Origin: Sclerotinia nivalis
Lineage: Eukaryota > Ascomycota > Leotiomycetes > Helotiales > Sclerotiniaceae
DNA: 64,000 nucleotides
NCBI GenBank assembly: GCA_029531795.1
Contig: JAPEIS010000004.1
Coordinates: 1,116,001-1,180,000, forward strand
Direction of reading: 5' to 3'
A program made the position numbers and the translations under genes. Of the stretch, positions 14,889 through 38,744 are shown piece after piece. The notes under the pieces were generated by a model. That model saw nothing but the letters and a program-made list of their open reading frames with translations, did no database searches and was not told the DNA's origin. Within the stretch, counting starts at the first letter, position 1, and each line of letters begins with the position of its first letter.

Positions 14889-14901
14889 TCAAGTTTGAAC
14901 A

Positions 14902-16836
14902 ATGAATGATCTATTAGCATATCGCGAGGCTCGAAAATTAGCAAATTCACAAAAAGTTGAGATCCCTTTTCAAGGAAAGTCTCTTACAACCCCTACGAAA
15001 GTTTTGTATACTGGTTTACAAAAACTTTGGGAAAGGCAAGTAAGATACTTCAGATAATATCACAAACATACTAACTTTTGCTTAGTTTCCGACAGGATAT
15101 CATACCTGATGCTTTTCCCGATCTTGAAACTATCGAGACATTCCTTATGTGGCATGCTAGCAATGCCAAAGGGAAACTCAATGAAAAGCTTTCTATCAAA
15201 ACTCTTTTATATAAAGTAGGAAGGTTTGGATGTATGTATGATGCAGTTTATCATTATAAAATTTCTGATACTGTTCTTGATCTTGCTCGATATGTAAGTA
15301 TTGTTAATCTGATTTACAATTTATACAACTAACCTCAATAGTATGTGTCGACAGATTTGGCAAAGGAGCTGGGTCTCGAAGATGCTGAGTATGATAAAGA
15401 GTGTACCGACTGGATCGATATCGAGATCATGATTCTTTACTTGACGGTGCAGGACGAACATGAATATCGCTGTAATCGCTATCGAATACAGCTGGGATGT
15501 ATCTTCATGTTGATTGCAGACGATGGAGAACGAATTGGTGCAATCACTAGATCAGACTCTTATCGTGAAGGTAATGTCGCGTTGTGCTATAAGGTAATTA
15601 TACTACAAAAGTCTCTATAATAGTACAGAATAATAATCAATATCTACAGGATCTCAAACTTTTTCTCCTTCCAGCACAAGGCTCGAGCTCAAGCCCTCGA
15701 TTCAGATTGGAAATCAAATTTGACAATAGAAAAAACGAAAGGGGAAAGAAGAATAAATAGTGAGATTATAGGGAATGTTTTCTAAAAGTTTTGTTCTAAC
15801 AAGATAACAGCATCGAGCAATCATATTTTTTGAGGGATGTTCCAGGTGCTTGTATTGTTTCTTGGATTTTGGCACTTGTATTCATGGATGATGCATTGGA
15901 ACATTATTCTACTCCTTCTCAACTATTTGAAAAGGAGACGTCAAACACAATGGAGATCCCAATTATCTTCAAACAAAGCAAAATGCACATACCTTTGTTT
16001 CGAAGGATGGAAGGACCAGGTAGTCGAAAACTTTCCTCTACTCTCGCGATTTCCAGCACTTCTGTGACCACAGATGCTCAACGTATCGTTGCAGCGGCGG
16101 GATTTAGACAGCGTTTTACGTTTTACTGTATTCGGCGTGGAATGAGCAACGCTCTTCATGATAGTAAGTTTTTCAACACATCTATATAGCGAAATGTACT
16201 AATTAACTTCCAGACAAGGTTGATAACTCTCGTATAAAGCAACTTATGGGCCATAGTGGCCCATCAGATAAAATTTTTCAGAAATATTATCAGTCTCGAA
16301 AGGTGAATATTGACACTGGGAATATTTATCGAATGCAACAACCGCGCTCAGAAAGGACCGAGACATTAAATATGCGTTCTAAACGAGACCCTACAGCCCC
16401 GGTGAAGCTTTCAGCAGATCAAAAGAGAGAGTACTACGACCAAGATAAAGACATACAAGATCTGCTTGCATCTAGAAAGAAGTTGAAACGAGATCTACCC
16501 AGTCAAAAAGAGAGTACCCGAGCTGAACTTGCCATTATTCGACGTAGCATTGAAAGGCGAAAGACTCATATAAGGAAACATGGTTTGAGGAAAGTCAGAG
16601 AGAATCATTTCGAGAACCTATCGAAACAGTCCCAATCCAGCGAAAACTCCGAGTCTGAAGTTCCGATTCCGCCCGTCGTTCGACCTGAACTTTCCAACAT
16701 TTTGTATCCTAAAGTATTTGATAGCAAAACTACCTTGCTGGCAATTGAAGGATTGATTGCATATTGTACTACTACAAGTACTCCGCATCATAATTCACAA
16801 AAAAGGAAATGGATTACTTATGGAAAAGGAGCATAG
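14902..16836 (+). CDS. DUF3435 tyrosine recombinase (Starship captain), six exons
   Basis: Predicted to cut and join DNA to mobilise the element. Exons 14902-15039, 15096-15293, 15342-15593, 15650-15759, 15811-16163 and 16214-16836 give 557 aa, all with GT-AG introns of 48-56 nt. The N-terminal half matches the SAM-like/DUF3435 region (AFPDLETIETFLMWHA). The catalytic fold follows: Arg176 in ADDGERIGAI, DSYREGNVALCYKDLKLFLL, Tyr338 and Arg341/342 in FYCIRRGM, GHSG, and Tyr375/376 in IFQKYYQSR. These fit the R-Y-R-Y pattern reported for captains, so it could be active. After about residue 400 comes a charged coiled-coil tail starting RDPTAPVKLSADQ, also usual in the family. No frameshift or internal stop remains after splicing. 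The stop codon lies inside a LINE target-site duplication, which does not change the protein. Confidence 0.88.
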
Positions 16837-16873
16837 ATTGATTGATTGATTGATTTCATTTACGTCCACCTTC
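16837..16873 (-). mobile_element. 37-bp LINE 3'-end insertion with 13-bp target-site duplication
   Basis: The segment GATTGATTGATTTCATTTAC... up to ...GTCCACCTTC is the reverse complement of the end of the LINE fragment at 17420-17457. It is flanked by identical copies of AAAAGGAGCATAG at 16824-16836 and 16874-16886. It is therefore an extremely 5'-truncated LINE insertion on the minus strand, directly at the recombinase stop codon (TAG within the left duplication). Confidence 0.85.
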
Positions 16874-16953
16874 AAAAGGAGCATAGAATTACTGCGCGTT
16901 TTAACGAATTGAAAGGATATAGTTGTAAGGAGATCAATAACGCACTCCCATAC

Positions 16954-17457
16954 TATATACAAAACTGAAAGAAAAGAAATCTTCAAAGAAATACCCCTAT
17001 CCAAAATCACCATACAATTTCTACTGCATACAAAAGCAGGTATCGAATTAGCAATCAAATTCATCAACAACACCAAAATCGCTACAAGGGCATGGCACTT
17101 AGCAAGAACCCTTATACAAAACGAAACAGAAGAAAGAGAGGTAGTAGAAGAAGAAGAAGCAATAATAGAGGGAGAGAGAGTTATTGCAGAAATGGAAGGA
17201 GTAGTAGTTGAAGAAGAAGAAGGGATGAACCCTTTTTCAACTCCTTGATCGTTATATTTTCTTATTTTCTTATTATATGCAACGCGTATAATAAGCGGGC
17301 ATTGGTCCCCAGCATTTGTTTTCACTTTCCTAAATTGAATATATCCAATCTTGTAGAATAAAAAGTTATCTGCTAGAGCCTTTAGAGGCCTAGCCGTCCT
17401 ATATAGTCTTAGACTGAAGGTGGACGTAAATGAAATCAATCAATCAATCAATCAATC
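16954..17457 (+). mobile_element. 5'-truncated Tad1-type LINE with 15-bp target-site duplication
   Basis: A 504-bp insertion is flanked by two copies of AACGCACTCCCATAC (16939-16953 and 17458-17472). It encodes the end of a LINE ORF2: QFLLHTKAGIELAIKF, then IATRAWHLART, then an acidic tail, and ends in an (ATCA)n tail. The 3' UTR shares CTAGCCGTC and AGTCTTAGACT motifs with the degenerate copy at 1351. It lacks the strong A+T bias and stop codons of that older copy, suggesting a younger insertion. Confidence 0.85.
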
Positions 17458-17749
17458 AACGCACTCCCATACCGGACTCCCCGGCGATCCAGATGCAATA
17501 CTCGGCGAAACTCAAAAGTAATCCTGTTGGAAAGTTATACACAAATCTCCTAGGATTTTTGTTGATCATACCTCACGATGTCACACGGCAATGACTCATT
17601 AGGGTCTGTGTCACATATTGATGACTCATAAGCTGTAAATGGCCTTAGGCCAATTCAATCAACCCTGTATTATTAGAACCATAAAAGGATGCGATCCCTT
17701 CTTGAAAACAAGAAGAGATCAAGGACCTTGAAACCACAGAAGATTATTA

Positions 17750-17795
17750 ACGTCTGTCCCTGTGTCCCGAGACGCACCCCGTAACGAGACAAATC
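17750..17795 (+). repeat. Left 46-bp terminal inverted repeat
   Basis: Identical to the reverse complement of 23955-24000. The sequence diverges immediately inside the 46 bp and outside the flanking TA. Confidence 0.9.
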
Positions 17796-18322
17796 TGTAG
17801 TTTTGGAATCATAACTTCTTTCTTAGCAACTCTACAGAGCTGCTATTAATATACTATTTTCTTTAGCTATTTCTCCCTAAGGAAACCACTTAGCAATAAG
17901 GAAAAGATAGTGGTTGGTTATGTTATTGATCGTTTTAACTACACCGTCGATCGTCGTTTTCGCTGTCCACCCCTGTTTGATCACAACTACTAATGTCTTT
18001 TCCTAATTCGGAGCACTCTAGGAAAGGTTCTATCCTGAAATAATATAGTTCCAAATTTTGAAGATATACAGAGAGAAAAAGAATAGAGTCCGGGAGTTAC
18101 TCCGATATGGGGAGACATCCTTTTGTTGTGTTGCTTAGTAATACATGTTAGCCGAGCTGCAGTTTACTATATTCACTCTCGGGGTCGCTAAACTTCACCT
18201 GGACACCAATCTCAGGTGTAGTCACGCGTGTGGCGCAAGAGTGGAGCATCGTCCTTTTCCATCGCGACGGCAAGTCCTTGCGCAAGGTGCACGTTCTGGC
18301 GTGCCATTATACTGTGTTCTTA

Positions 18323-18572
18323 TACCGTATTCTTTTGAAAAATTCGTACAAAGCTAGCAAGGATTGATTATTTAAGCTCATCGTGGGTTAGGGTTGCGGA
18401 GAACACCGGAGTTGTTTGATTCGTTATCTCAATGGATTATTCATCAAATGCCTTGTATTTCTGTCAAATACTTCTATTTTGAGGCATTCAGAGGGAAGCT
18501 AATTGGTTCCAAATTAACCTTAAAGTAATAATCCTTGCTAGCTTTGTACGAATTTTTCAAAAGAATACGGTA
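18323..18572. repeat. 250-bp fold-back (MITE-like) element
   Basis: A 43-bp arm starting TACCGTATTCTTTTGAAAAA (18323-18365) is repeated exactly in inverse orientation at 18530-18572, with a 164-bp loop. Similarity continues imperfectly for about 10 bp more into the loop. TA at both outer edges may be the target duplication. It lies about 300 bp upstream of the NLR start codon. Confidence 0.85.
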
Positions 18573-18871
18573 ATAACAACATCCTCCATTCTGCATTCTC
18601 TCTCGTGCTCATAAATGACGCTCAATAAAAGAGAAGGCCCAGAGCCATTAATATCTCACTATTATAACAACTCTGGGGGTGCTGGGAATACAGTTTTTTA
18701 ATCTTGAAGATTTAATCGCTCAAAATCTAGGTATTATAAACCCCCCATGTCTATTTTGAGATTTAACCGTAGTCCTCAGCCACGTATGCAACCTCGTCGC
18801 AACTCGAACGTCAGCCGTACGAACAAAGATGTCTATTACGCACTCTCTTCATCTGCTTTATCGCAATAACA

Positions 18872-21800
18872 ATGGCAGAGGCTCTCGGAATTGTCTCTAG
18901 TGTTATCGCAGTTATCGATTTATCTGTAAAGGTTGCCTCACGGTGCTCCGAGTACTACACAAATGTCAAGAATGCTCGAGATGATATCGGACGCCTTCAA
19001 AGTGAGGCCCAAGGATTAAAAGCAATACTTGAGAGAGTCCGTTCACTATGCGATGGTACAAATGGTGTGAGACTTCAAGATCCGCAGGGCTTGCGTAAGG
19101 GAGTCGAGAATTGCCAGAAGCAGCTCACCCAGCTGGAGGCAAAGCTCGAGCCTCGAAGAATTAACAAATTAATGAGTCGCCATGGAATACGCGCCTTGAA
19201 ATGGCCTTTCAAGAGCAAAGAGGTGGATAGTCTTATAAAGAAACTCGAAAATTGCAAGGCCAACATATCTCTCAGTCTCCAAGTCGACCAAGAGTATGTG
19301 ATTGCGTTCGTATTACAAATAGCAGAAACTGACGATAATGTTTATAGGATACAAATTCTTAACATCCATCAAAAAATAGTACTTGATACACTCCGATCTG
19401 TCAACAACGCCGCGTTTGACTCCCACGACGAAGAACACAATGCCCGATGCTACCAAGGCACACGAGCGGAACTCCTTCAGCAAATATATAGCTGGGCTGG
19501 CGATCGAGGCAGCGAACACATATTCTGGCTGAATGGTATGGCAGGCACTGGCAAGTCTACAATCTCCCGCACTGTGGCCCAAAACTTTGTCGATAAAGGA
19601 GTGCTCGGCGCCAGTTTCTTCTTTAAGAGAGGTGAAGGCGACCGTGGCCACTCAGGAATGTTTTTTGCGACGATTGTTACTCAGCTCGTCCAAAAACTAC
19701 CTTCCTTAGCGCCACATATTCAGAACGCGATCGAAGCTGACCCAGGAATCTCTGGGAAGGCTTTGAGGCAACAATTCGACGCACTTGTCTTGCAACCGTT
19801 GGAGAAGATACGAGTCGATCGTCAGAAGTCTTGCAGCATAGTGGTTGTGGTTGATGCCCTTGACGAGTGCGATCGAGTAGAGGACGTTAGAACTATCATT
19901 CACCTTTTCTCACAAGTGCAACACATCGCGTCAGCACAACTCAAATTCTTTTTGACAAGCAGGCCAGAGCTTCCGATTCGCCTGGGCTTTGAGGATATTA
20001 GAGGTAAATATGAAAGATTGATCCTCCATCAAATTCCTGAGCCAATTGTTAAGGCGGATATCTCTTCATTCATAGAACACGAACTAGCAACAATTCGAGA
20101 AGATTACAACAAATCAGTCACCCAAAGCCGGCAATTACCCGCGGATTGGCCAGGCTACACAGTCGTTCAAAGTTTAGTCGGAATGGCTATCCCATTGTTT
20201 ATTTTTGCTACAACAGTCTGTCGGTTCATCAATGACCGAAAATGCGGTCAACCGAAGGATCAACTTGCTAAGGTCCTGGAATATCAGAGTAGAAGCCAAG
20301 CCTCTAAACTTGACGCAACATATCTCCCAGTCCTAGACCAGCTACTCGTCGGAGTCACTAAATCAGAGAGAAGCAGTCTATTACAAAACTTCAAGCAAGT
20401 TGTTGGATCAATCGTCATTCTCGCTAGCCCTCTTTCCGCTATTTCTCTCGATCGACTCCTCGGAGTCCCTGAAGGTACAGTCGACAGTAGAACAGATCTC
20501 CTCCACTCTGTTCTAAGCATCCCCTCTCATCCTGATCATCCTATACGGCTGCTCCATTTGTCTTTCCGGGATTTCCTCACTGATATTGAGAAGTGCGGGA
20601 CGAATCACTTTTGGGTTGACGAGAAAGATGCCCATAAGAACTTAGCGACCCGATGCCTTGAACTCTTATCGATAGGCGAAAGTCTCAAGAAAGATATTTG
20701 CAATCTTCTGACACCAGAAAAGCCACGAGCAGATATTGATAAACAAACGATAGATTTTCACCTACCATCCGAAATTCAATATGCTTGCCAGTATTGGGTA
20801 TACCACTTGAAGGAAAGCGGAAGTAGTATACACGATAGCGACCAAGTCCACAATTTCCTCAAATGTCATTTTCTGCACTGGCTTGAATCATTAAGCTTGA
20901 TTGGAAGGCTACAAGAAAGTATTGGGATGGTAGATAGCTTGATGGCTATAATAGACGTATGCTACCCACTACTCTCAACTACAAGTATTTACTAAATATA
21001 AGTTTTAAGCCAATAAAAGGCAGCGAAATATCTAAGTTCCTTTACGATGCAAAGCGCTTTATCCTCAACTACTACTCTATAGCTGACTCATCGCCCCTTC
21101 AACTCTACTCCTCTGCGCTTATCTTCGCCCCCCAAAAAAGCATTATTCAAAATACATTCCATAATTACACTCCTGATTGGATCCTACAGGAGCCAAATAC
21201 AGATCTGGAATGGAATGCAGTTCTTCAGACGCTTGAAGGGCATAGCGATTCGGTCAACTCGGTCGCTTTCTCAGCCAACTCGAAACTGCTAGCGTCGGCA
21301 TCGCACGATCGCACAATCAAGGTCTGGGATGCAGCTACAGGCACACTACAGCAAACGCTCGAAGGGCATAGCGGTTGGGTCAAATCGATCGCTTTCTCAG
21401 CCGACTCGAAGCTGCTGGCATCGGCATCGGGCGATCGCACAATCAAGGTCTGGGATGCAGCTACAGGCACACTACAGCAAACGCTCGAAGGGCATAGCGA
21501 TTCGGTCAACTCGATCGCTTTCTCAGCCAACTCGAAACTGCTAGCGTCGGCATCGCACGATCGCACAATCAAGATCTGGGATGCAGCTACAGGCACACTA
21601 CAGCAAACGCTCGAAGGGCATAGCGGTTGGATCAGCTCAGTCGCTTTCTCAGCCGACTCGAAACTGCTAGCGTCGGCATCGGGCGATCGCACAATCAAGA
21701 TCTGGGATGCAGCTACAGGCACACTACAGCAAACGCTCGAAGGGCATAGCGGTTCGATCAACTCGATCGCTTTCTCGGCCAACTCGAAACTGCTAGCATC

Positions 21801-23247
21801 GGCATCGGCATCGCGCGATCGCACAATCAAGATCTGGGATGCAGCTACAGGCACACTACAGCAAACGCTCGAAGGGCATAGCGATTCGATCAACTCGATC
21901 GCTTTCTCGGCCAACTCAAAGCTGCTAGCATCGGCATCGGCATCGGGCGATCGCACAATCAAGATCTGGGATGCAGCTACAGGCACACTACAGCAAACGC
22001 TCGAAGGGCATAGCGATTCGATCAACTCGATCGCTTTCTCGGCCAACTCAAAGCTGCTAGCATCGGCATCAGCATCGGGCGATCGCACAATCAAGATCTG
22101 GGATGCAGCTACAGGCACACTACAGCAAACGCTCGAAGGGCATAGCGGTTCGATCAACTCGATCGCTTTCTCGGCCGACTCGAAGCTGCTAGCATCGGCA
22201 TCAGCATCGCGCGATCGCACAATCAAGATCTGGGATGCAGCTACAGGCACACTACAGCAAACGCTCGAAGGGCATAGCGATTCGATCAACTCGATCGCTT
22301 TCTCAGCCGACTCAAAGCTGCTGGCATCGGCATCAGCATCGGGCGATGGCACAATCAAGATCTGGAATGCAGCTACAGGCACACTACAACAAACGCTCGA
22401 AGGGCATAGCGATTCGATCAACTCGATCGCTTTCTCAGCCAACTCAAAGCTGCTGGCATCGGCATCAGCATCGCGCGATCACACAATCAAGATCTGGGAT
22501 GCAGCTACAGGCACACTACAGCAAACGCTCGAAGGGCATAGCGGTTGGATCAGCTCGGTCGCTTTCTCAGCCAACTCGAAGCTGCTAGCGTCGGCATCGG
22601 GCGATGGCACAATCAAGATCTGGGATGCAGCTACAGGCACACTACAGCAAACGCTCGAAGGGCATAGCGGTTGGATCAACTCGATCGCTTTCTCAGCCGA
22701 CTCAAAGCTGCTGGCATCGGCATCGGCATCGGCATCGGGCGATCACACAATCAAGATCTGGGATGCAGCTACAGGCACACTACAGCAAACGCTCGAAGGG
22801 CATAGCGATTGGATCAACTCGATCGCTTTCTCAGCCGACTCGAAGCTGCTGGCATCGGCATCGGGCGATCGCACAATCAAGATCTGGGATGCAGCTACAG
22901 GCACACTGCAGCACACATTCGAAGACTATATTGGCGCCAGAAATTTATCATTTGATATCACAAACTCAATCTTAATTACAGACATTGGCTGCTTTAGGTT
23001 AAATATAAACAGCAATATCCCTTTGCCTCCATCTTCTCGAGCAATAAATAGTAGAAGCCACCGTCAAGGATTAAGTATCAATGAGTCTTGGGTAATATGG
23101 AATGACCAGAACCTTCTTTGGTTACCACCCGACTTCCGGCCTGGAATCTTTACTATCTCGCATGCCGGCTCGAAACTCGCCATTGGGTGTCAATCTGGGA
23201 GAGTTTTTATTATCGGAATAAATAATCCATATAGTAATATTCTTTAA
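18872..23247 (+). CDS. NLR: N-terminal domain, NACHT, 13 near-identical WD40 repeats
   Basis: A STAND-class receptor of the fungal non-self recognition type. Two exons (18872-20956 and 21010-23247; intron with donor GTATGC, branch ACTAAA and acceptor AAG) give about 1440 aa. Residues 1-130 (MAEALGIVSSVIAVIDLSVK...) resemble the fungal STAND N-terminal, HeLo-like domain. NACHT follows: Walker A GMAGTGKST near 221-229 and Walker B VVVVDALDECD near 322-332, then a FFLTSRPELP sensor-like strand. A linker (SKFLYDAKRFIL) leads to 13 WD40 units (about 770-1330), each reading LEGHS...AFS..SKLLASAS..D.TIKIWDAATGTLQQ. A conserved tail (NESWVIWNDQNLLWLPPDFRP) follows. The apparent frame change at 20957 is an intron, so the gene looks intact. 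It lies in the 17750-24000 inverted-repeat unit and is one of the Starship hallmark families. Confidence 0.92.
21234..22925 (+). repeat. 13 tandem WD40-coding repeats (126-138 bp)
   Basis: The basic unit is 126 bp (42 codons). Copies 5-10 carry one extra Ser-Ala hexamer (132 bp) and copy 12 two (138 bp). Copies are almost identical except at a few codons: after EGHS (DSVN, GWVK, GWIS, GSIN, DSIN, GWIN, DWIN), N or D before SKLL, and H/G/R with R/G/H around the D of DRTIK. Clustered variation in otherwise homogenised repeats is typical of fungal NLR recognition surfaces. Confidence 0.95.
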
Positions 23248-24260
23248 TAAAGTTAGCTTACTTTCAGAAATAACTATTGTAATATAAACATCATCTTCTC
23301 CTTAATATTTATTTTATAACTGAGCCAGAAGAGGCGTGGGGAGAGCTACACTTATATACTATTGTGGATTATACCAGATTCTTCTATGCCTTTCTAACTT
23401 ACATTGTTCTTTCAACTTTGTGGGAAGCGACTTACAGACTGTGGCTGACTGTAGTGGTAATGCGCTAAAATTAATAAGGTTAATCACGAGTCTTTTCCCT
23501 ATCTGTAAAGGTTGGCTGAGTGTCATTTAGTAGCCATAGATATCATTTTATCGAAATTACTATAGCCACACCGCCACCAACCGCGATCCTTGATCGCTTG
23601 ATTGAAGGAAGTATCAGCCTTTGTGGCGATAGTGTATTATATAGCGTACTGTGATCACTACAATATTGAGAATAAGTTTTTAGCATTGCAGTAAAACTCA
23701 GAAACCTCTATCTAATCGTTCTACGAGTTTAAAAAGCGAAAAAGGCTTTATGGTGGTATCGCAAATCGAGAGGTCCCAATATAGCAAAAGGAGGCTCTCT
23801 ACAAATGCAAGTGGGCAGCGATAACGCGATAATAATTTTCGGAAATGATAAGTCAGGAGTGCTCTGAAGAAGCATAAAATACAATTGTAGACAAAACAAA
23901 CAGAAATTTTAACGTGGTTGTGGATTTAAAGTCACTTAAACTCGAAGTACCTACGATTTGTCTCGTTACGGGGTGCGTCTCGGGACACAGGGACAGACGT
24001 TAGCGGATGAAGACAACCTGGCGGGCGATAGTAAAGTGATGAACAAAGATCAGAAGTTGGGTGAGATTAAAGGGTTGAGTGATGGCAAAGTATAATGCAC
24101 AAGCAGGAGCGGCTGAGTGAGACCGCGGATGTAGGTGATACTGCAAAAGATTAAACACAAGCGATATAGGAACCAAGATTGACAGGAAAAGTAATGACCG
24201 ATCCCATTCTATTAAGCTATATTCATTTCAAGTACTCTGACACCGTGAAGGCTAAGCATC
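23248..24260. other. 3' flank of the NLR, no gene recognised
   Basis: A+T-rich sequence containing the right terminal inverted repeat (23955-24000). No other feature is supported. Confidence 0.5.
23955..24000 (-). repeat. Right 46-bp terminal inverted repeat
   Basis: Exact reverse complement of 17750-17795, followed by TA at 24001-24002. Confidence 0.9.
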
Positions 24261-24755
24261 TTAAATTTTTACCAAGTCCTTGCAATTGTCCTCGTAAAAC
24301 AACCGATCCCCGGTCAAACCTCCCTCCTCTTCATCCTCCAACAAAGTCACTGAGTCATAATCCTTCACAATGGTTAATTCTTGATTCAGACGATCCATTG
24401 ACTCCTGAAACCTAGCCCTTGCTTCCTGAAGTCTCAACTTTGTTTGGTCCAACTTCTCTTGCCTTGCTTCAGCACTCAAACCAACATTAGTGTCATTCAC
24501 ACCTTCCACAATACCTCCATGTGAGACCCCATGTGAAACTCCATTCGTAGTGGTAGGAACAAGGTGGAAAATCAAGGTTCCATCATTTCTTGCATTGATT
24601 GTCATGGTTCCAGGTGATGAAATATCAAGGGTATATTTGTAGGTTCGAAAGATAGGTTGTGTTGGTTCTTTGTCGATAGGGCGGTATGCTGGTAAATCAT
24701 CATTATAGATGACATTGCCTGCCTTTCTGAAGGAGAAAAATGGAAACAGACACAT
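24261..24755 (-). CDS. Hypothetical protein with a short coiled coil
   Basis: A 164-residue open frame with no recognised domain. A charged helix (EARQEKLDQTKLRLQEARAR) could form a coiled coil, followed by an acidic stretch (LLEDEEEGG). The residues before AGNVIYNDDLP read MCLFPFFSFRK and may be intron or leader rather than protein. A CAG acceptor-like site precedes AAAGGCAGGC, so the true start is uncertain. It lies between the NLR unit and the ferric-reductase-like gene. It could also be spurious, but codon use and composition look protein-like. Confidence 0.4.
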   Translation of the reverse strand: MCLFPFFSFRKAGNVIYNDDLPAYRPIDKEPTQPIFRTYKYTLDISSPGTMTINARNDGTLIFHLVPTTTNGVSHGVSHGGIVEGVNDTNVGLSAEARQEKLDQTKLRLQEARARFQESMDRLNQELTIVKDYDSVTLLEDEEEGGLTGDRLFYEDNCKDLVKI

Positions 24756-24825
24756 GTTTCTAATGATTTGTTAGATGAATGTCCAAATAATAAGAGAATT
24801 GTACTCACGTATAGTTGGGGCTTCT

Positions 24826-24882
24826 TGTGAGATTAGAGCTTCTTATGAGATTGGAGCTTCTTGTGAGGAGTATATCTTTATC
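24826..24882. repeat. Three-copy 21-bp repeat
   Basis: Head-to-tail copies close to GCTTCTTGTGAGATTAGA, about 75-130 bases upstream of the hypothetical minus-strand gene. Confidence 0.65.
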
Positions 24883-28610: not shown

Positions 28611-29146
28611 TTATTTTAAATTTTGTGCTATGTGTTGTTTTATTACGGAGTATGGCAGGATTAATTGGAGATATTATAGGCAGTCGGGGCGCACTACTGA
28701 TTAGCATATAATGACCAGTAACGGTCTCTTGGCTGGCTCCATTAGCAACAGGTGTTGAAAGGTTGGGTAAACTAGTTTAATCTCTATTTTTTGGGTGGTT
28801 TATGAGTACTGCTTGATACCATTTGATGTTATTGCTTTCCTTTCTTTAAGTTGTTCCTGCACAGATCTTATATAGCAGTGGGTTAAAAGATACCTTTCTA
28901 CATTTAATATAAAATAAAAGGTACAAAGAATCAATCACGATATAGTTAAGTTTTTCTGATTCACTATACCAAGTCAACTAAGAGACAAAAATAAAAAAGC
29001 TTCTGAATTATAGCGGGTAATGTGTTCTATCATATATACCGTTCATCGGAGCATATATTTAATCTTCCAATGGCATTAACTCTAATGACCCACAGGGTCC
29101 CCCTCTCTCCACTCTATCCCATTGATTGACAGGTATATGTAACTAT
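28611..29146. other. Spacer between convergent genes
   Basis: A+T-rich 3' flanks of the MADS-like and DUF3723 genes. No gene is seen. Confidence 0.5.
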
Positions 29147-32100
29147 TCATCCAGTCCGCCTTCTCTTTGTAGGTTCAGATTCTAGAATATGATTTTTTCT
29201 TAAACTGTTCCCATGATCTGGGGAAAGCTTTCTCTTGCCCTCTTCTGCAAGATAGGGTGTCTGCTGGTCATTATTCCCTTTGAAATTCATTCCTTCCTGC
29301 TTGTCTTGGGGGGATATAGAATCAATGGTCTTGGGAAATGGTTCTTTTGGTTCCATAGGAAGGATTTCCAATTGCTCAAATGGTTTCATCTCTGAGTTGC
29401 TGGTGATTGTTTCTATTTTGTCTGGCCTTTCTTGCTCTGATTGCTCGGAACTGTTGTTTTCCTCCGAGTTTTTCCTTACTTTCAGCTGCTCTCTCTTTGC
29501 TTTCCTAACTCCATATTTTCGCCTATTTAGCAAGGGATTCATTGTATTGTTCCTATCTCTTGATTGTTTTTTCATCTTTTCATAATGTTGACGTCTAAAA
29601 CAATAATATACATCATTGCTGGTTCTTTTTTTTTCAATATGTTGGAGAAATTTCTTGGGCGGAATGGTTTTCAAGCTTCTTGAATCTGACGTTTGGATTA
29701 CTAATGCCCAGCCATGACGTTTACCCAGATAAGATTGAACATCCTCTATCGTCTTTAACATCCGGCGTTGGTTTGTCATTCCATTAAACTCATTTACTAT
29801 AATCTCTGGCTGAGAAATTGTTGGGCTGTTGTTTGAACTCTGAGTAACGTCTGGTTGTGGGGCCAGTGATCTTGTATCGTCTGGGAGTGATATTATTGAA
29901 GTGGTCGTAGACTTATCAATAGTGCCTTCTTTATGTTGTTCCTTCTCAGTTAGTATACTTGATTCAGGATCGGTTATTATTACAACTTACTACAATATTT
30001 GAATTCAAATCTTTATCTTTCATATTAACAGTTACATTCTGGATTATTTCTGAAGGGAGTGGAATAGGCATTGATCTTCTTGGCTCGTCAGGGAGTGCCA
30101 AATCTAGTGGTGATATATCTTGCATACTTTCGTCTCGTATCCCCTCATCACTTCCAATTATATTAGATGCTTCATTTGATTGTGATGGTAATATAGATAG
30201 GCTTTCCTTTTCGGCTTCTATAGCTATTGGCATTGATCTTCTTGGCTCGTCGGGCAGTGTCATTGCCAAATCTAGTGATGATATATCTTGCATGCTTTCG
30301 TCTCGTATCCCCTCATCACTTCCAATTATATTAGATGCTTCATTTGATTGTGATGGTAATATAGATAGGCTTTCCTTTTCGGCTTCTATAGCTATTGGCA
30401 TTGATCTTCTTGGCTCGTCGGGCAGTGTCATTGCCAAATCTAGTGATGATGTGTCTTGCAAATCCTCATCTTTTCCGATAATGGCAGATGCTATATTTGG
30501 ATGTGATGATACGACTAGACTATTTATTGGTGCATCTTCTATAGTCTGGTCGTCTGCGTTGGTCACAGCTAAAACAGTGTTCTGTGAGGGGTCCAGACTG
30601 GATGAAGTGAGATTAATTGGCTGCAAAGAAGATTGCGAAGGTAAAAGCTCAGGTCTATTTCTTGGGGTCTGGCTATGAAGTTTTATGTGTTGACGATCTA
30701 CGTTGGCTTGCCACAAGCTGGGATTAATGTCTATTGTTGACATTATAGGTGACCTGTGTAGATCTTCAGGACTCCATTCACGACCAGTTATAGTTTCTTG
30801 TTCAAACAAATATGGTACATTAGCCATACCCCCCATTAAAGTATCAATTTCCGGCAATACTACCAGCTGCTGCTCGGAGCTCTCCGCCGGTGATTGATAA
30901 TTTGGAGATAGTTCGGGCGGTACTATTGATAATGCTGGTGATCGAGCACTTTCTGACCTTGATGATGTTATGACCTCGGTGCCTTGGTTGTGAGTGCCAG
31001 ACTGGAAGGTAAAGTGATCGTGATTGAAGCTATCCTTCTGTTCGAATGCCGATGTGAGCGGTGAGACCTCCGATAATGCTAGAGATCTTGCAGGTGAAGC
31101 AGGTGTCTCTGGGTTCCTTATGATATTTGCAATGTTTTGACTGGGAATGTCTGTCCCATGAGCCAACTGATTGTTGAAGGGCATAGTTTCACTATTTAAT
31201 GAAGATGATGTCTTCGGCTCTGGAGTCAAAGGCTTGGAACTAAAAATCCTCTTCCCTTTATCTTCATTATGTTTCTTTTGTTCCGTCAAAAAGTCATTTG
31301 GAAGTTCGATGTCTGGGATTTTTCTCGTGGCATCGCCTTTGCCATGACTATCGGTCCCTTGGATACTATGCTGACTGTCATCGTTTCTTTTCATCTCTTT
31401 AGCGTTGACTAGTGGTTCTTGATCTACTAAAACTGTAACATCTTGAACTTTTTCCGATTTTAAACTTTCATCAATCACCTCGGTTTGGAAAGGAGTCGGT
31501 TTTGTAGAGGTTTCCACTGGTTCATTATTTGTCATACTTGATGAATCAAATATGTAATCCATTTCATCCGCTAGAGTTAGATGTTGTGATTGTGAACCCT
31601 GCGGATATATCGTGGATTGGAGGGTGTTTCGGTTCATGGGAGCTCTGGATGAAGATGAGGGTCCACCACGTTTATCAACCGAAGAGTAAGATGAGCTTTC
31701 AGCCGGGCCTGGTGGAGTATTGTTGGAGTTCATGATCTCACCAGCTTCAAAATCAGGCGTTCTGCCAAAGAATGAGAAGATAAAATCTTGAAGAACGAAT
31801 AAATGAGAAGGCATGTTATCTCCCACCGAAAATAAGGTCTTCGAAAGGCTAGTGAGGTAGAATTCCTTCTTTCCTGCGGTATAACTCTTTGCAAATGGAA
31901 CGCCCCATCGGTGACTCAAGTCGATCGGTGATGGTGTGTTCCCCATGTTCCAGTGTCTCCCACCAGTATCAACTGAAGAGCTACCATTTGAATTGATGAT
32001 GGGTAGATTTTCCACGAATCTCGCTGTTACTCTCTCAATTTCATCCTCATTATGAGAGGGGTATATTTGACAAATTGATGTCAACATCGTCTTGTGTCTA

Positions 32101-33242
32101 GGATCACCCTGGAGCCTACTTTCAATCTTTCTTGTATTGATTCCCACATCCTTGGCGAACTTGACAAATTCATATTGTAGTACTGGGTCTACCGTGGGCT
32201 GGTAAGGTGGCAATCTGTATTCTTTTCGTGGTGCACGCCCTCCTAACTCGGAGAAATTCCTTAGTGCCCAAATCCAAACTTGTTTGTAGATAATACTCCA
32301 TGCAACTTCATTCGAATGGCTTGCTTTGATGTGGGATCTTTTACCTTTAGTCTCAATAAACAGCTCACCATTGTAGGTCCAAGCCGCACGTAGAGCATTG
32401 TATATAGTAAGCCGTGGACTCTTCGCTATAAGTAGGTTCTTTAATATCTTCGCACCAACTTCCAAGTATTTGAGGTTCTCATGCATAGTTTTGAGACTAG
32501 GTATCAAACAATCCACCCTCAAAATAGCTTCTAATACTTTCTTCCTTGTTTTTGGGTCAGTTATTTTGGGAAACAGTTTGCCAGATGCCATTTCGGAATT
32601 GATGAATTTCCTGTCACTGCGGCTTAAAAAAGGGACACGAAGTTGAAGCAGCCGAACTGTCTCTACATCTGTCGCCATTTGGATGATCCTGTCACTCAAC
32701 GTTACTTTCTCCCAGACTGACTGAATATGTTCTAGATATCGCGTGATTTCTTCATCACAACGTAAGGCCAAAACTTTTTGGATATTTCCCAGCTCTAGCC
32801 CTATCCAAAGGCCGGGTATTGGAATAAGGCGGTCGAAAAGTTCTGTAATATCTTCACGTTTAAGTAATTGATCTAAGCTGACCCTCTTACAATTGGTAAG
32901 CCTTCCCTTCCAAGCCGCAATCTCCATTTCGTCATTAGTTTTTTGGCTATGTCGAACGTTGCAATACACTTCTCCATCAGAGTATTTTGCATGAATAGTC
33001 AGCCTGTTGAGCTTTTGCGGAGTTTCGTCAAAAGCTGTTGATATCGTGTTTAATTCGGTTTCATTCAAGAGGACCGGAATGTAATGAGAAGCATTGTAAT
33101 CTCTAGAATTTTGTTCTCGAAAAATTTGTCTCAATCCTTCAACAGTGCCTCTATTCACTTCTCTACTTTCATCTAACTTAGAGCAAAATACGCCAACCTT
33201 TGCAACTCCAATCAACCCGTTTTGCTTTCGTGGTCGTGACAT
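29147..33242 (-). CDS. DUF3723 protein (Starship hallmark), two exons
   Basis: A large protein (about 1348 aa) of the DUF3723 family, whose biochemical role is unknown. Exon 1 is 33242-29991 and exon 2 is 29941 (or 29944)-29147; the 49-nt (or 46-nt) intron has GTAAGT and TACTAAC. The N-terminal 450 residues hold the family domain, including GLIGVAKVGVFCSKLDE near the start, GLRQIFREQNSRDYNASHYI and EYRLPPYQPTVDPVL. A long low-complexity middle (Ser/Thr/Pro/Glu-rich) contains two near-identical 57-residue repeats around LPDEPRRSMPIAIEAEKESL. The C-terminal exon restores a conserved block (EDVQSYLGKRHGWALVI, KTIPPKKFLQHIEKK) and ends with basic KRRRTG, a possible nuclear signal. The gene appears intact. 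Confidence 0.88.
30055..30450 (-). repeat. 171-174-bp tandem repeat inside the DUF3723 gene
   Basis: Two nearly identical copies and a partial third encode SLDLAMTLPDEPRRSMPIAI followed by EAEKESLSILPSQSNEASN and IIGSDEGIRDESMQDIS. Unit length is a multiple of three, so copy number can vary without breaking the frame. Confidence 0.9.
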
Positions 33243-33365
33243 AGCTTTTCGGTACGTGAATAAATAATATTCTCATAACAGAGATCTATCAGCAGAAAAC
33301 TCGGTGGCAAGATCAGAATCTCTGAACGGGATTTGGAATTTCGGGATATTGGTAAGATTGTCAAT

Positions 33366-33845
33366 ATAAATTTCTACCAAGAGAAATCTTTCAGTAGAAA
33401 TCCTTTTTTGGATAATAATAGGAAATCTGGACGACGGGAATCGGATTTTGGATAGAAAGTTCTACCAAGAGAAATCTTCCAGTAGAAATCCTTTTTTGGA
33501 TAATAATAGGAAATCTGGACGACAGGAATCGGATTTTGGATAGAAAGTTCTACCAAGAGAAATCTTCCAGTAGAAATCCTTTTTTGAATAATAATGGGAA
33601 ATCTGGACGACGGGAATCGGATTTTGGATAGAAAGTTCTACCAAGAGAAATCTTCCAGTAGAAATCCTTTTTTGGATAATAATAGGAAATCTGGACGACG
33701 GGAATCGGATTTTGGATAGAAAGTTCTACCAAGAGAAATCTTCCAGTAGAAATCCTTTTTTGGATAATAATGGGAAATCTAGACGGGAATCGGATTTTGG
33801 AAAGTTCAGACATCTTCCAGTAGAAATCTACCAGTAGAAATCTTA
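33366..33845. repeat. 88-bp tandem array, about five copies
   Basis: Copies of a unit with TTCTACCAAGAGAAATCTTC, CAGTAGAAATCCTTTTTTGG and ATCGGATTTTGGATAGAAAG repeat head to tail. The last copy is truncated (33777 onward). The array starts about 120 bp upstream of the DUF3723 start codon. Open frames across it have no meaning as proteins. Confidence 0.92.
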
Positions 33846-34058
33846 ACCTGTTTTTTTTGGATATTGAATGATGAAGGGGTAGATTTCTCGATTCACAGAT
33901 GCGGGGTAGATTTCTCGGTTCACAGATGCGGGGTAGGGTTATCCAGGATACGAAATTCGGGATTATGATTTCCCCTACAACCTTATAAATTAATAAGGAT
34001 CAGCCTTATACCATATGTGTTTGTAACATATATCTTTTTAATTATCTATTATCAAAAT
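33846..34058. other. Upstream region of small coiled-coil gene
   Basis: Contains a short duplication (GATTTCTCGATTCACAGATG and GATTTCTCGGTTCACAGATG near 33881-33930) and A+T-rich DNA leading to the ATG at 34059. Confidence 0.5.
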
Positions 34059-34424
34059 ATGAACCAAGCTAAATATCAGCTTCAACCATTAACCTTCAAG
34101 AAAGGAGGGCAAAGGCCAGTCAGTAAACCACTTCCATCAACTCCTGGCTCGGCCTTGCTTTCTTCACTAGAAGTAGAAAATGAAATGCTCCGCAAGGAAA
34201 ATGAGACTCTACGGCACGATATACAAGTTGGCAGAGATCGAATTCGTCGATACCGAAGGATAACTGTTGCAGCAAAAGCATTTTTCCGGCAAACCACGCT
34301 AGGCGCACAAAAGTTTGAAGACATACTCCTCGTTACACAGCAAGAAAAGAAGGATACTCAGTATTCTAAGCCCGATTCTGTCGTTAGTAGCATTCAAAAT
34401 CAGAATAGCAATAATTGGATTTGA
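34059..34424 (+). CDS. Small coiled-coil protein
   Basis: A 121-residue single-exon frame. Residues 35-75 (SLEVENEMLRKENETLRHDI) form a clear heptad pattern typical of a leucine-zipper coiled coil. The flanking basic segment (GRDRIRRYRR) follows rather than precedes the zipper, so it is not a standard bZIP. The ATG at 34059 was chosen over 34017 because the extra residues of the longer frame are hydrophobic and A+T-encoded. Its position between DUF3723 and the phospholipase suggests cargo. Function unknown. Confidence 0.6.
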   Translation: MNQAKYQLQPLTFKKGGQRPVSKPLPSTPGSALLSSLEVENEMLRKENETLRHDIQVGRDRIRRYRRITVAAKAFFRQTTLGAQKFEDILLVTQQEKKDTQYSKPDSVVSSIQNQNSNNWI

Positions 34425-35303
34425 TCGTGAGTTTCTGTATCAAACGGAAATTTCCAGCCCCTAATTATCTATCTACAGATTTGGTGTTCTATGAGTTTTT
34501 TACTTCGCTTTGGTCGGAATTGGAAGAAAGGTGTTGCTTCAATTGGAGTTTGGGACTTAGTACAAAGAATGTAGTACATAGGGTTGCCTTTATCATAAAT
34601 CGGACACTTCTATATACATGAATTCAAATAAACATTACACAATCTTCTTTGATCTGCACCATTCTCTGTAAAAAATGATCAGATTTGAGCTAGAATAAGT
34701 TTCTCAAATATCAGTGAAAAATCAAAAAGCTGTTGTACCAAATCATTCTGCCCAACACAACTCAATCCTTGAAAATTTATATGGAGAAAACCTGCCCTAA
34801 TATATTTGATTTTTACTTCCTTCTCGTAGTCCGCCACCGCTCCACCAATAGGGGGGACGCATTGATTTGATGGATTGGTAGGATATCGGGTATTGAACCA
34901 TAATGATGGTAGAGTTTATGAGCTCTTGTTAATGCGGTTCAAAAGTTTTAAAGAGGTGATTGATGCCATTGACGTGGAAATGAGGAAGTCACACAGGTGC
35001 TTCCAAGGACGCCATTGACACCGACCGTAGCCTGAAATATTTTCCGGTGCTTGACGGGTGCTAGGAATAAATCTAAGTATGAATCTCTCACCGGAATGAC
35101 GGGAAGCATAATGCATTCAGGCTATTGTATTTAACTCTAAGAAGTCACCTGTTATATTATACCCTAACAACGCTCACGTATACATTGGATATGATGCGAT
35201 TCTTGAAGATTTGTTCTGTATTAGTAGGATTAAAAGTAGAATTCTTTAGATAATTTCTCTACTTGTTTTAAGATCCATATACAAAAGAAAGCCCTGCTCT
35301 AGT
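34425..35303. other. Intergenic, no gene recognised
   Basis: An 880-bp A+T-rich spacer without supportable coding sequence or structured repeats. Confidence 0.5.
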
Positions 35304-38300
35304 CTACTCTACACGCCTTATGCGTTTTGGAAATCGGTCATTGCTGAAGACATTATTTCTCTTGATCCCTCTCCGGCCAAATGCGCAATCCAATCCCTGA
35401 TCTTTAATCAACGTCTCAATCACATACGGACAATTACTGATACTCCGTGGTCTTGACACAATGCCGTCTATTTTAATATCCAGCGGATCCGTCAATGACC
35501 GTGCTCTAAATATTATATCCTTAGAGAATGGTTTTCCGGCCTCAATATCTGTGAGCATATCCGAGTCCATCGCAAAGACTGAACGATGGAAGTCGAGGTG
35601 AAATCTAGCTCTACTATTCCTTAAGCGAGCTGCAAGTGCTTGAAGTCCATTGCTAGATGGATCCAATCGACAAAGTATGCGTGCTTGACAAACGAAAGTA
35701 TTGCAGTCAAATATGGGCACTCCATCAAGCTCGATGTAAAACAAACATGCTAGCAGGTTATCGGCGCATTGCTGGACTTCGTTATTAGCTGAAGCCTGCC
35801 ACTGTACCTGTTGACGGAGACCTGGTATGACCTGGATATCATCGAGTGCTGGTTCGGACCCCAAAAATTCGACATTGAAACGATGGTATCTATCACGTAC
35901 GTGCGGGGCCAGAGTGTTGCACAACTCTCGCCATCTACTCTCCCCAACGAAGAAGTTCAAGAATGATGCGAAAAGCCGAGGGACGCAGCGAGAGTTGAAG
36001 AAAGAAATTCGTCGCGAGTTCTCCTCGGCTTCTTCTTTGGTAGTTTGCATAAAGCCTGTACCGAGAGAAACTACGATGTCAGGCTGCTTTTTAGATCTAT
36101 TCCAAATAATATCTTGTTCCCAAATAGCTAAATTTATTGGGTTGTTGTGCCCTCCAAGACCGCCATCCTGATACCCAGCAAAAGGCCTAAAATAACTATA
36201 AAAGTCAGCTTATTCATTGTGCATACCTCAAATTGAAATCTTACGGTGGCGCCGCCGAGCTAGCCCGTGCCCTTGTAAAGTCAATAATCGTCTATTGTAA
36301 GTCATTCGGGGACTCACGCTTGCCATATAAACAATTCCTTTGTTTTATCTTCAGGTCGAATGATACGATACCCTAGATTATATATCAGCGATGATGTGAA
36401 GATATTTGCACTGAAACAAACCGCAGCTCTCAGACCTAGTTTCCTGTCCATTATAATTCGTAAAAATACATGTAGAACAGTCATCTGTGGTTGTGGCAAT
36501 GACCCCTATTTTAACTCCGGAATCAGCTTCGAATAAGGAGGAATCCATCCCAAATGTTTTTTGTAAGGCATTGTTGATATTCGCCGAACTGTACCGGCTA
36601 TCAGCCGCAATTGATAAGATTCCTTCCACAACTCTACTCAAATATCCTAAAGCCGGAAACTTTCTACCGAACCGAACCCTCTTCCGAAATATGAGCTGCG
36701 AGAACTCCTGAAAATTTGTCAGGCATTTATCTACAGACCATTTATTGACGAATAATCCCATTATAACCAATGCACCTACATCTAGTCAGCACGAATATTG
36801 AACTTGAATGTAGAAGATGAACCTGAACTACTCCCAAAAGCCAAATCAAAGTGCTCATGGATATTGGTGGGAAGCCCAATGGCGGCTTCCAACTCTTTGA
36901 GGAATGACAATGGGATAATTCCTCTTATTCCACCACCTTCCGCGATGATTGATCTAACACCAGCTGTCCTAGGTTTAAGGGAAAACTTTCTGCTGTTGGT
37001 CTTTCCACAGAAGATGCAAGACGGAATCAGGAAGGTCCAAGCATGAGAGTCGACTTCTTCACCTATCGAGATCGTACACTCGTCACATATTGTATGGCGG
37101 CAGCTCATGGTATTCTCTGGTTTTCGGGCCATACAGCAAAAGCAGGTAGTATTGCTGTAAATCTTTTCCCATTCTTTATCAAATCGAGAAAGTGCATTTT
37201 TATGAATCAACTCTCCCTTGTTTGAATTGACTACAGCGATAGCATATTGTGAAAATGATGTTTCAATACCTCTGGTCAACTGCGGGTACTTGTAAGGATC
37301 GATTTTGAGACAGGTCTGATAAAAGAATTTCCGAAAAACTAATAAGGGATTAAAGGCTGGTGGCTGTTAGTATATGCTTTTCACCATGGGATTGATGTCT
37401 CTATACCATGCATTCCAGGAGGATAGCTATCAAATACTAGCGCAGAAGCGATAACAGGGACAGCAAAGTTCAACAGTTGTTTCCTGTCAACATTCTGCAA
37501 GAAACTAGTTAGGTGGACAAGGAAGTCTTCGGATATGGGATTGGAAGCTCGTGACGCTTCTATAAAACTGAAACTCGTGTCCCCGTTCAAGCAAAAATGA
37601 CGAATTGCCATTTGAAAAAAAGCCTTGAAATGGCGGATCGAAAATGCGACTCGGTGGTGGTTCCGGAGCTCCTGTATATCTCCAGATTCTTGAAGAAGAC
37701 GCTCCCTTAGAGGTGTCCAATTTCGCTGAGAAGATGTTAATATTGGGAGGCTCAGAACATGTACCCCGCTAAATTGCTTTGCTAGCAATACATCTAGTTC
37801 TTTTTTCCTTGGGGTTTCTCCTTGTCTTCCTGCAGTCTCTTTACTGAGAGCCAGTAAGAACTTCTTGGTAGCACCATCCTCCCACTCAGGAGTAGCCCCA
37901 GTATCTTTGAAGATTAACACCTTTGGATACGTGGAGATAGGAAGGTCGGTCGGAGCCTCTGGCAAGCTTGTTAACCAAGTCGCCATGATATCCAAAACCC
38001 CAGCCATGCCTCCAAGGTCGTCAGCAAAGAGGCAGATCACGGTACTGAAAGGCGAAATGAGCTTTGAATAGATCTGATATGCGAGGAATTTGGTATCAAA
38101 GTCCCGTGGAAATGCGAGAGGTCTTGATGTAAAATCACCGAGATTCTGAGTAGCTATCGTTATTGGTCGTGATGGATTATGCAACTCGCAGTCAGCATAA
38201 AAAACCGGTTCTGGATCACTGATTGTTTCGAAGTCAATGCGAAGTTGTATCTCCCCCCTAATTCCTTTTTGTGGTCGGCATCCAAATCGAGTTTTCCTTA

Positions 38301-38463
38301 AGACCTGTGATTTCGTTTGCTCTCCAATAAAAGCAATCATCTGTGGCTTTTGTTGATCGAGGGACAAATCACTAAAATAGGTGTAAGGTCGATGATGCTC
38401 CTGTAACAGTAAGCCTTCGGAGCTGGCTCCGAAGGTCAACCACGTTGACTCTGAAATTGTCAT
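35304..38463 (-). CDS. Patatin-like phospholipase with RING-like finger (Starship PLP), six exons
   Basis: A predicted lipid acyl hydrolase with a Ser-Asp dyad. Exons 38463-37407, 37356-36823, 36775-36422, 36372-36318, 36271-36245 and 36195-35304 give 972 aa. Residues 1-420 have no recognised domain. A C3HC4 RING-like cluster at about 424-469 reads CFCC...CRHTICDEC...CIFC. The patatin domain follows: oxyanion loop GGGIRG near 493, nucleophile motif GSSSG near 527-531 (split by an intron), and the Asp in GYQDGGLGG near 686. All catalytic elements are therefore present. The last 250 residues have no domain I recognise. PLPs of this sort are among the five Starship hallmark families, and patatin domains also act in fungal immunity-like systems. 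Splice sites carry good branch sequences (for example ATACTAACA). Confidence 0.88.
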
Positions 38464-38588
38464 GTTGTTTTAATATAATTGACTACTTGTTTTTTAATAT
38501 TTCTGTTATTTTTTTTATTTTTTTCTCTTTCTTCTTTCTACGAATCCCTCCTCTTTTTATGTTTGTTCGAATCTAGTACTGTTTTCGG

Positions 38589-38652: not shown

Positions 38653-38744
38653 TGATTTAGCATTATTCACAAGCCATCTCATATAGATATATGTCTCTGT
38701 ACTGATTATATCTTCAAGCATAGGTTTCATTTCAGAATTGTACG

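What the first reader, a model, noticed from the sequence alone, without database searches (positions are those of the whole stretch)
14902..38463. Complete Starship hallmark gene set: captain, NLR, FRE, DUF3723 and PLP within 24 kb
Each gene was recognised independently from its motifs: DUF3435 recombinase with R/Y/R/Y residues, NACHT-WD40 NLR, ferric-reductase-like, DUF3723, and patatin with GGGIRG/GSSSG/DGG. Their co-occurrence with a leftmost captain reading inward is the known signature of Starship giant transposons. All five models splice to open frames, so the element could be young or still active. Host-like genes (glycerol uptake, tRNA) lie to the left of the captain.
Basis: partly seen in the sequence, partly recalled or inferred. 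Interest (0 to 1): 0.92.

Follow-up and report, generated by a model that had tools for sequence, protein, structure and literature searches.

The report
Giant transposons inside a tRNA gene
In a plant-pathogenic fungus (Sclerotinia nivalis) this stretch is most of a 68-kb Starship giant transposon that sits inside a tRNA gene, appears to rebuild that gene as it inserts, and is followed by at least one more such element head to tail, much as mobile islands do in bacteria.

Summary
The five hallmark genes are real and the Starship reading holds; the decisive evidence lies outside the finding's coordinates. Captain, NPHP3_N/NACHT-WD40, ferric reductase, DUF3723 and patatin genes pass Pfam cut-offs; the captain equals an annotated Sclerotinia nivalis protein.

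The "host tRNA" is the integration site. It is tRNA-Asp(GTC); its first 22 nt lie in a 23-bp direct repeat bounding the element (window 14191-14213 and C4:1198378-1198400, 68 kb apart). Of 7 complete tRNA-Asp genes found, 3 carry this element's left end. All four captain copies found lie 0.6-0.7 kb inside such a core. Four cores bear a shared right end; beyond two of them (C11, C5) lies DNA like native tRNA-Asp upstream sequence, beyond the other two another left end. So the tRNA's 5' part is displaced to the right border and resupplied at the left: the gene is regenerated (mature sequence unchanged in 2 of 3 occupied loci, one change in the third). Here element A is followed by B (87 kb) and a third left end: a tandem array.

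Passages of six Starship papers mention no tRNA target; the founding papers were not held. Empty alleles in other isolates could not be tested.

The parts
14191..64000 (+). Part of element A inside the window; the element runs to C4:1198400 (window scale 82400), 68,187 bp core to core
   Evidence: 23-bp repeat at C4:1130191 and C4:1198378
14128..14212 (-). tRNA-Asp(GTC) with a 13-nt intron, straddling the left border; ARAGORN's default run called it tRNA-SeC
   Evidence: Not listed at Rfam's gathering score in the window
14128..14190 (-). tRNA 3' part, read as derived from the host target gene
   Evidence: Absent at the left end of element B; the 3' flank resembles unoccupied tRNA-Asp loci
14191..14213 (.). 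23-bp core / direct repeat, left copy: the first 22 nt of the tRNA plus one base
14214..14901 (+). Conserved left end of the element, between core and captain start
   Evidence: Five left ends in the genome by pattern; 59.7-91.1% pairwise identity over 190 bp, against 45-51% to DNA upstream of unoccupied tRNA-Asp genes
14902..16836 (+). Captain, DUF3435 tyrosine recombinase, 6 exons, 557 aa (OCU04_004392)
16838..17450 (.). Two short insertions behind the captain stop (about 37 bp at 16838-16874 and about 0.5 kb at 16951-17450) relative to copies B, C and D; 42-bp inverted repeats at 16833-16874 and 17415-17456
17748..24002 (.). 6.25-kb unit with perfect 48-bp inverted repeats at its ends, enclosing the NLR gene
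   Evidence: the repeat was found once more, singly, at C13:10953
18872..23247 (+). NLR: NPHP3_N/NACHT with 13 WD40 stretches, 1440-aa model
26044..27509 (-). Ferric reductase-like gene (FRE), ends not modelled
   Evidence: Three Pfam domains over cut-off; region also in elements B and C
29967..33272 (-). DUF3723 protein (OCU04_004397)
   Evidence: the only other PF12520 match found in the genome is in element C
35304..38463 (-). Patatin-like phospholipase (PLP), open 966-aa model
44705..47743 (-). Cargo: 1013-aa frame with Ulp1-type C48 peptidase match
8824..10705 (+). Left flank, host: FGGY carbohydrate kinase gene

Best explanation
A 68-kb Starship-type giant transposon of Sclerotinia nivalis whose captain tyrosine recombinase integrates at the 5' end of tRNA-Asp(GTC) genes. 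Shown by sequence: a 23-bp core (the first 22 nt of the tRNA plus one base) stands at both ends as a direct repeat; the captain starts 0.6-0.7 kb inside the left core in all four captain copies found; at C11 and C5 DNA resembling the native tRNA-Asp upstream flank lies beyond the right core; at A, C and D the left junction reads as a complete tRNA-Asp; on C4 element A abuts B, and B's right end abuts a third left end, all in one orientation. Inferred: the captain recombines a 23-bp site on an excised element with the same 23 bp in the tRNA gene; because the element brings its own copy of the tRNA 5' end, the gene is rebuilt and stays a usable target, so further elements can insert at the same gene and accumulate head to tail, the newest nearest the tRNA.
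For: Seven complete tRNA-Asp genes found; 3 of 7 (C4, C11, C9) carry the element's left end on the tRNA 5' side, 4 do not. An 18-mer of the tRNA 5' part occurs exactly 11 times: 7 complete genes plus 4 truncated copies, all 4 at element borders. A right-end pattern hits 4 places and a left-end pattern 5, all at these cores, 0 for the reversed control. DNA beyond the right core at C11 and C5 resembles DNA upstream of unoccupied tRNA-Asp genes (1 and 0 of 2000 random 60-mers score as high; the four unoccupied loci tested the same way: 3, 0, 0, 3), while element-internal left ends do not (1560-1879 of 2000). Mature tRNA: 72 nt, identical in C, D and the 4 unoccupied loci, one difference in A. All four captain copies lie by a core. 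Captain: DUF3435 plus a weak Phage_integrase match. Decay order fits stacking: A's captain open, B's with lost start and stops (140 private changes against 36 in A), no captain match near E.
Against: No second isolate or related genome could be compared, so a true empty allele is not shown; the empties are paralogous tRNA-Asp loci. D's right end was not found on C9; the orphan right end on C5 needs a rearrangement or misassembly. Element E's right end, and the native upstream flank for the C4 locus, were not found. The interiors C11:2144701-2231000 and C4:1260001-1284700 were not read, apart from short search loci, so the pairing of ends for C and B rests on position and orientation. Junctions rest on one assembly without reads. 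The captain structure prediction failed (pLDDT 37). Published DRs are shorter (2-12 bp) and TIRs frequent (18 of 20) in A. fumigatus (PMC12153272, passages); here the DR is 23 bp and no TIR was found. Rfam listed the tRNAs of D and the 4 unoccupied loci but neither A's nor C's, and ARAGORN names C's tRNA Phe(aaa) by another intron placement. None of the other captain-type loci held (18 of the 20) shows a tRNA in its 1.5-kb flanks, so the rule would be for this captain group only.
Confidence: 0.87

Rival explanations
1. Segmental duplications or ectopic recombination between tRNA-Asp genes copied a captain-bearing region around the genome; no site-specific integration.
For: tRNA genes are known rearrangement hot spots (general knowledge, no call); the C9/C5 split suggests at least one rearrangement.
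Against: Homology between A, C and D stops at the tRNA 3' end on the left; their 3' flanks differ, each resembling unoccupied tRNA-Asp flanks; right ends are shared at four places without a complete tRNA; element B has the left end without the tRNA 3' part.
Confidence: 0.06
2. Ordinary Starships whose target happens to be a tRNA gene; the complete tRNA at the left border is a by-product of where the core lies, not a selected feature.
For: The core lies at the tRNA 5' end, so a complete gene at the left follows for any element carrying the core; 5S-targeting Starships are described as fragmenting their target (PMC12153272, passages).
Against: The mature tRNA is complete at 3 of 3 occupied loci, with one change in one of them, and the array shows repeated use of one site. 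This rival differs only on whether regeneration is adaptive; the anatomy is the same.
Confidence: 0.2
3. A decayed relic region with unrelated DUF3435, NLR, FRE, DUF3723 and PLP genes gathered by chance in a repeat-rich stretch.
For: Retrotransposon genes are abundant in B and present in the right part of A; B's captain is decayed.
Against: Open frames for captain, NLR, DUF3723 and PLP; FRE and DUF3723 blocks recur in element C on another contig with the same captain and ends.
Confidence: 0.02

Closest known systems
Starship giant transposons of Pezizomycotina
   Different: 23-bp direct repeat inside tRNA-Asp against 2-12 bp DRs in A. fumigatus, and no terminal inverted repeat found where 18 of 20 have one (PMC12153272, passages); target gene rebuilt; head-to-tail array rather than nesting
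Osiris (Enterprise family) Starships at 5S rDNA
   Same: Captain-bearing giant element aimed at a multicopy small-RNA gene, with a DR longer than 6 bp
   Different: Insertion is described as fragmenting the 5S gene (PMC12153272, passages); here the tRNA is restored at one border
Bacterial integrative elements and genomic islands at tRNA genes
   Same: Tyrosine recombinase, element carries part of the tRNA, gene restored, tandem accretion (recalled, no call)
   Different: Eukaryotic host, DUF3435 recombinase; the 5' end of the tRNA is carried, whereas bacterial elements mostly carry the 3' end (recalled)
Dada DNA transposons of fish
   Same: Eukaryotic DNA transposons inserting in tRNA genes, including tRNA-Asp (PMC8869645, passages)
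   Different: 6-7 bp TSDs, and insertion in the anticodon arm for the families in the passage read (PMC8869645); DDE-type transposase, not a tyrosine recombinase (recalled)
Cryptons
   Same: Eukaryotic tyrosine-recombinase DNA transposons
   Different: Described as very distantly related to captains and, unlike Starships, without the sizeable variable cargo (PMC12134995, passages)

Membership tests
Starship | DUF3435 captain nearest one end, reading inward | tested here: met
   Captain starts 689 bp inside the left core; DUF3435 146.9 bits
Starship | Catalytic residues of the captain | tested here: met
   R176, Y338, R341, Y375/Y376 invariant in 3 sequences; Phage_integrase match below cut-off; assignment of roles is by motif only
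Starship | Flanking direct repeats marking a specific target | tested here: met
   Identical 23-bp core at both ends of A and at the two ends assigned to C
Starship | Large cargo-bearing element, about 20-700 kb (PMC12153272, passage) | tested here: met
   68.2 kb core to core
Starship | Auxiliary genes NLR, FRE, DUF3723, PLP | tested here: met
   Pfam matches
Starship | Terminal inverted repeats (frequent, not universal) | tested here: not met
   Longest inverted match between the outer 200 bp is 9 bp, and it is not terminal on the right; 18 of 20 A. fumigatus Starships have TIRs (PMC12153272, passage), so optional
Starship | Empty site or presence/absence variation | tested here: inconclusive
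   Four unoccupied paralogous tRNA-Asp genes; no other isolate available
Starship | Placement in a named captain family | not tested
   No reference captains at hand
Starship | Captain-dependent transposition | not testable with these tools
   Needs an experiment
tRNA-integrating element (mechanistic class, bacterial model) | Element carries the tRNA portion that integration displaces, so the gene is restored | tested here: met
tRNA-integrating element (mechanistic class, bacterial model) | Host-side remainder of the target at the far end | tested here: met
   C11 and C5 right junctions; not found for the C4 array's far end
tRNA-integrating element (mechanistic class, bacterial model) | Prokaryotic phage-type integrase | tested here: not met
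   DUF3435 captain with a Phage_integrase match below cut-off; it works like, but is not a member of, the bacterial class

The most novel reading that the evidence does not exclude
A lineage of eukaryotic giant transposons has independently arrived at the bacterial genomic-island strategy: its tyrosine recombinase recognises the 5' end of tRNA-Asp, the element carries that piece so the gene is rebuilt at each insertion, and the rebuilt gene keeps recruiting new elements, so that a tRNA gene becomes a standing dock where Starships stack head to tail with the newest next to the tRNA.
Probability: 0.72. Interest if true: 0.85.

Novelty: new variant of a known kind. Interest (0 to 1): 0.74.

Why it matters
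How Starships choose targets and avoid harming the host is open. An element family with a 23-bp site inside a conserved tRNA gene gives a predicted attachment site, ends and empty-site structure to the base, so integration by a captain becomes directly testable on plasmids. It would be convergence between eukaryotic giant transposons and bacterial islands on tRNA docking, would explain how large elements insert without loss of a needed gene, and predicts where to look for such elements: directly upstream of tRNA-Asp genes in Sclerotinia and Botrytis relatives. It also warns that boundary finders expecting short repeats or single insertions could misread tandem arrays.

Tried and rejected
Structure prediction of the captain from a 5-sequence alignment gave mean pLDDT 37 and was not used for any fold search. 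PDB sequence search of the captain: no match up to E = 1. NCBIfam on captain and DUF3723 protein: none. Do the genome's other captains also sit at tRNAs or 5S genes? Rfam on the 20 loci gave nothing, but it also missed element C's tRNA, which lies in L013, so that negative is weak. ARAGORN with introns on the same 20 loci found a tRNA only in L013; L012 (A's own) is cut inside the tRNA; the other 18 have none within their held flanks of 1.5 kb. The 13 further exon matches without a locus were not examined this way. A profile search for more distant captains returned the same five proteins as the single-sequence search. A simple hexamer gene finder failed for captain, FRE, the MADS-like frame, kinase and FGGY and gave a faulty first PLP model. 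Considered and rejected: ARAGORN's default tRNA-SeC call; the tRNA as a mere neighbour; segmental duplication. Paper searches, nine in all; PMC papers named in the report were seen as passages found by term only. Three founding Starship papers were looked up by DOI (recalled) and are not held.
Full report
WHAT WAS CHECKED. The window is G000:C4:1116001-1180000 of a 50.3-Mb, 31-contig assembly. The organism is Sclerotinia nivalis, by 100% matches to OCU04_004392 and OCU04_004397 on a contig of the same length as C4, 2,968,593 bp. Pfam confirms all five gene types: DUF3435, NPHP3_N (with NACHT below its own cut-off) and WD40, Ferric_reduct/FAD_binding_8/NAD_binding_6, DUF3723 and, once spliced, Patatin at 59.9 bits. 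An unspliced patatin exon and a first model were below the cut-off. The captain has six exons (14902-15039, 15096-15293, 15342-15593, 15650-15759, 15811-16163, 16214-16836). FRE was checked by domains only.

THE tRNA IS THE INTEGRATION SITE. An all-against-all comparison of 264 kb of the genome showed four copies of the captain: A (this window), B (C4:1198986), C (C11:2270307, minus) and D (C9:810335). Homology between A, C and D begins at window 14125-14128, the 3' end of a tRNA gene on the minus strand. With introns allowed ARAGORN reads tRNA-Asp(GTC) in 6 of 7 loci (A, D and the four unoccupied ones), with an intron of 13 or 14 nt in the anticodon loop; C it calls Phe(aaa) by placing the 13-nt intron before the anticodon, although the Asp reading gives the same mature sequence as the others. 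A genome search with this tRNA gave 8 matches: 7 complete and one partial, the partial one being B's left end. Upstream of the tRNA, A, C and D share one sequence while the other four loci do not.

BOTH ENDS. The 18-mer TTTGATGGTCTAACGGTC from the tRNA 5' part occurs exactly 11 times: in the 7 complete genes and at C4:1198380, C4:1284981, C11:2144417 and C5:312403. One further place has 2 mismatches (C4:2634131), and the reversed control pattern has 2 hits at up to 2 mismatches. Reading 500 bases at three of the four truncated places, and the already fetched fourth, shows the same kind of right-end sequence before the core in 4 of 4: 60.7-98.4% pairwise identity over 190 bp (no control was run for right ends). 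Beyond the core, C11 and C5 show DNA like that upstream of unoccupied tRNA-Asp genes; C4:1198380 and C4:1284981 show another element's left end. Pattern counts at up to 3 mismatches: 4 right ends and 5 left ends, all at these cores, 0 in the reversed controls. The shared core is ATGACCGTTAGACCATCAAAGAT, 23 bp. A is 68,187 bp core to core. From the core positions B is about 86.6 kb and C about 126.5 kb (arithmetic); C4:1260001-1284700 and C11:2144701-2231000 were not read apart from short search loci, and C contains another DUF3435 locus at C11:2170-2172 kb, so these two may hold nested elements.

CAPTAIN POSITION. The captain begins about 689 bp (A), 586 bp (B), 601 bp (C) and 588 bp (D) inside its core (arithmetic).

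THE tRNA IS REBUILT. The mature 72-nt sequence is identical in C, D and the four unoccupied genes; A has one C-to-T difference. Rfam at its gathering score listed D and the four unoccupied genes, but not A's or C's, whose introns are one base shorter; whether that is the reason was not tested.

CONTROLS. For the first 60 nt beyond the core, best local score against the four unoccupied upstream regions: C11 is reached by 1 of 2000 random 60-mers from the fetched DNA, C5 by 0 of 2000; the four unoccupied loci themselves, each against the other three, by 3, 0, 0 and 3 of 2000. The element-internal left ends of A, B, C and D, and the C4:1284981 sequence, are reached by 1560-1879 of 2000. The 3' flanks of A, C and D, and of the four unoccupied loci, are each reached by 0 of 500. 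Left ends are 59.7-91.1% identical to each other and 45-51% to unoccupied upstream DNA. Against a general rule: of the 20 captain-type loci held, ARAGORN with introns finds a tRNA only beside element C's captain (L013); A's own locus is cut inside its tRNA and the other 18 have none within 1.5 kb. So the tRNA-Asp rule is shown for this captain group, not for the genome's other, distant captains.

ARRAY AND AGE. On C4 the order from the tRNA is A, B, E in one orientation. A's captain reads open, C's is open over the part compared (its last residues were not resolved in the alignment). B's has lost its start and holds stops; D's holds a stop and then loses the frame. Private changes over the captain region: A 36, B 140, C 22, D 64. 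In B 89 of 140 are C-to-T or G-to-A, but not confined to the CpA/TpG context (18 of 54 and 8 of 35), so repeat-induced mutation is suggested rather than shown. No captain match was found near E. This fits arrival in the order E, B, A, each at the tRNA-proximal core; that order is inference. D has a left end and tRNA on C9 but no right end there, while C5 has a right end with a native-like flank but no tRNA: a split of one element by translocation is the simplest reading, misassembly not excluded.

CARGO. FRE-region DNA is shared by A, B and C; the DUF3723 block is shared by A and C, in opposite orientation relative to the captain. Two PF12520 matches were found in the genome, one in A and one in C. 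The right part of A outside the window holds a fungal protein kinase gene and a chromodomain-type retrotransposon.

LITERATURE. From passages only: PMC12153272 gives DRs of 2-12 bp for 19 of 20 high-confidence A. fumigatus Starships, TIRs for 18 of 20, 5S rDNA as target of Osiris, and says the insertion fragments that gene. PMC12134995 mentions other TEs and 5S rDNA as preferred sites. PMC12289983 describes nested Starships. The word tRNA occurs 0 times in the held main text of PMC12134995, PMC12289983, PMC12153272, PMC12506042, PMC11623301 and PMC12257634. The one held paper with Starships, tRNA and captain uses tRNA in an unrelated sense. So tRNA-Asp docking is not reported in what I could search; three founding papers (NAR 2024, MBE 2022, PNAS 2023; titles and dates recalled) are not held, so priority cannot be claimed firmly.

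VERDICT. The finding is right about the Starship and incomplete about its most interesting property. Membership in Starships is well supported; empty alleles among isolates and movement are untested. What it works like is a tRNA-docking integrative island; it is not a member of that bacterial class.

Noticed in passing
17748-17795 and 23955-24002: The NLR gene lies in a 6.25-kb unit with perfect 48-bp inverted repeats that begin with TA; one further single copy of the repeat was found at C13:10953. It may be a non-autonomous inverted-repeat transposon that carries an immune-type gene within the Starship.
   Followed up: partly
C5:312403 (L051) and C9:809658: An orphan right end on C5 with native-like tRNA-Asp upstream flank, and a left end with tRNA on C9 without a right end: one element apparently split by a translocation, or a misassembly. 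The C5 right end is 98.4% identical to B's over 190 bp.
   Followed up: partly
L049, C4:1284981-1285200: A third, most diverged left end follows element B; no captain match and no right end were found for it.
   Followed up: partly
L031:2348-5966: Element B carries a second NPHP3_N/NACHT and WD40 gene region, in two frames.
   Followed up: no
16838-17450: Two short insertions behind A's captain stop codon, absent from copies B, C and D, with 42-bp inverted repeats at the outer sides.
   Followed up: partly
C4:1211-1255 kb (L028-L032): Element B's fetched 61.6 kb has 35% GC and several diverged reverse-transcriptase and RNase H frames.
   Followed up: no
21226-22887, 45841-46680, 57673-58299, 33268-33883: Tandem repeats: near-identical WD40 units in the NLR, 60-bp units in the C48-peptidase frame, 57-bp and 88-bp arrays.
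   Followed up: no
S. sclerotiorum sscle_05g041070 (P0015), Botryotinia calthae BOTCAL_0078g00220 (P0017): Captain relatives at 89% and 48% identity; their genomic sites are the obvious test of the tRNA-Asp rule.
   Followed up: no
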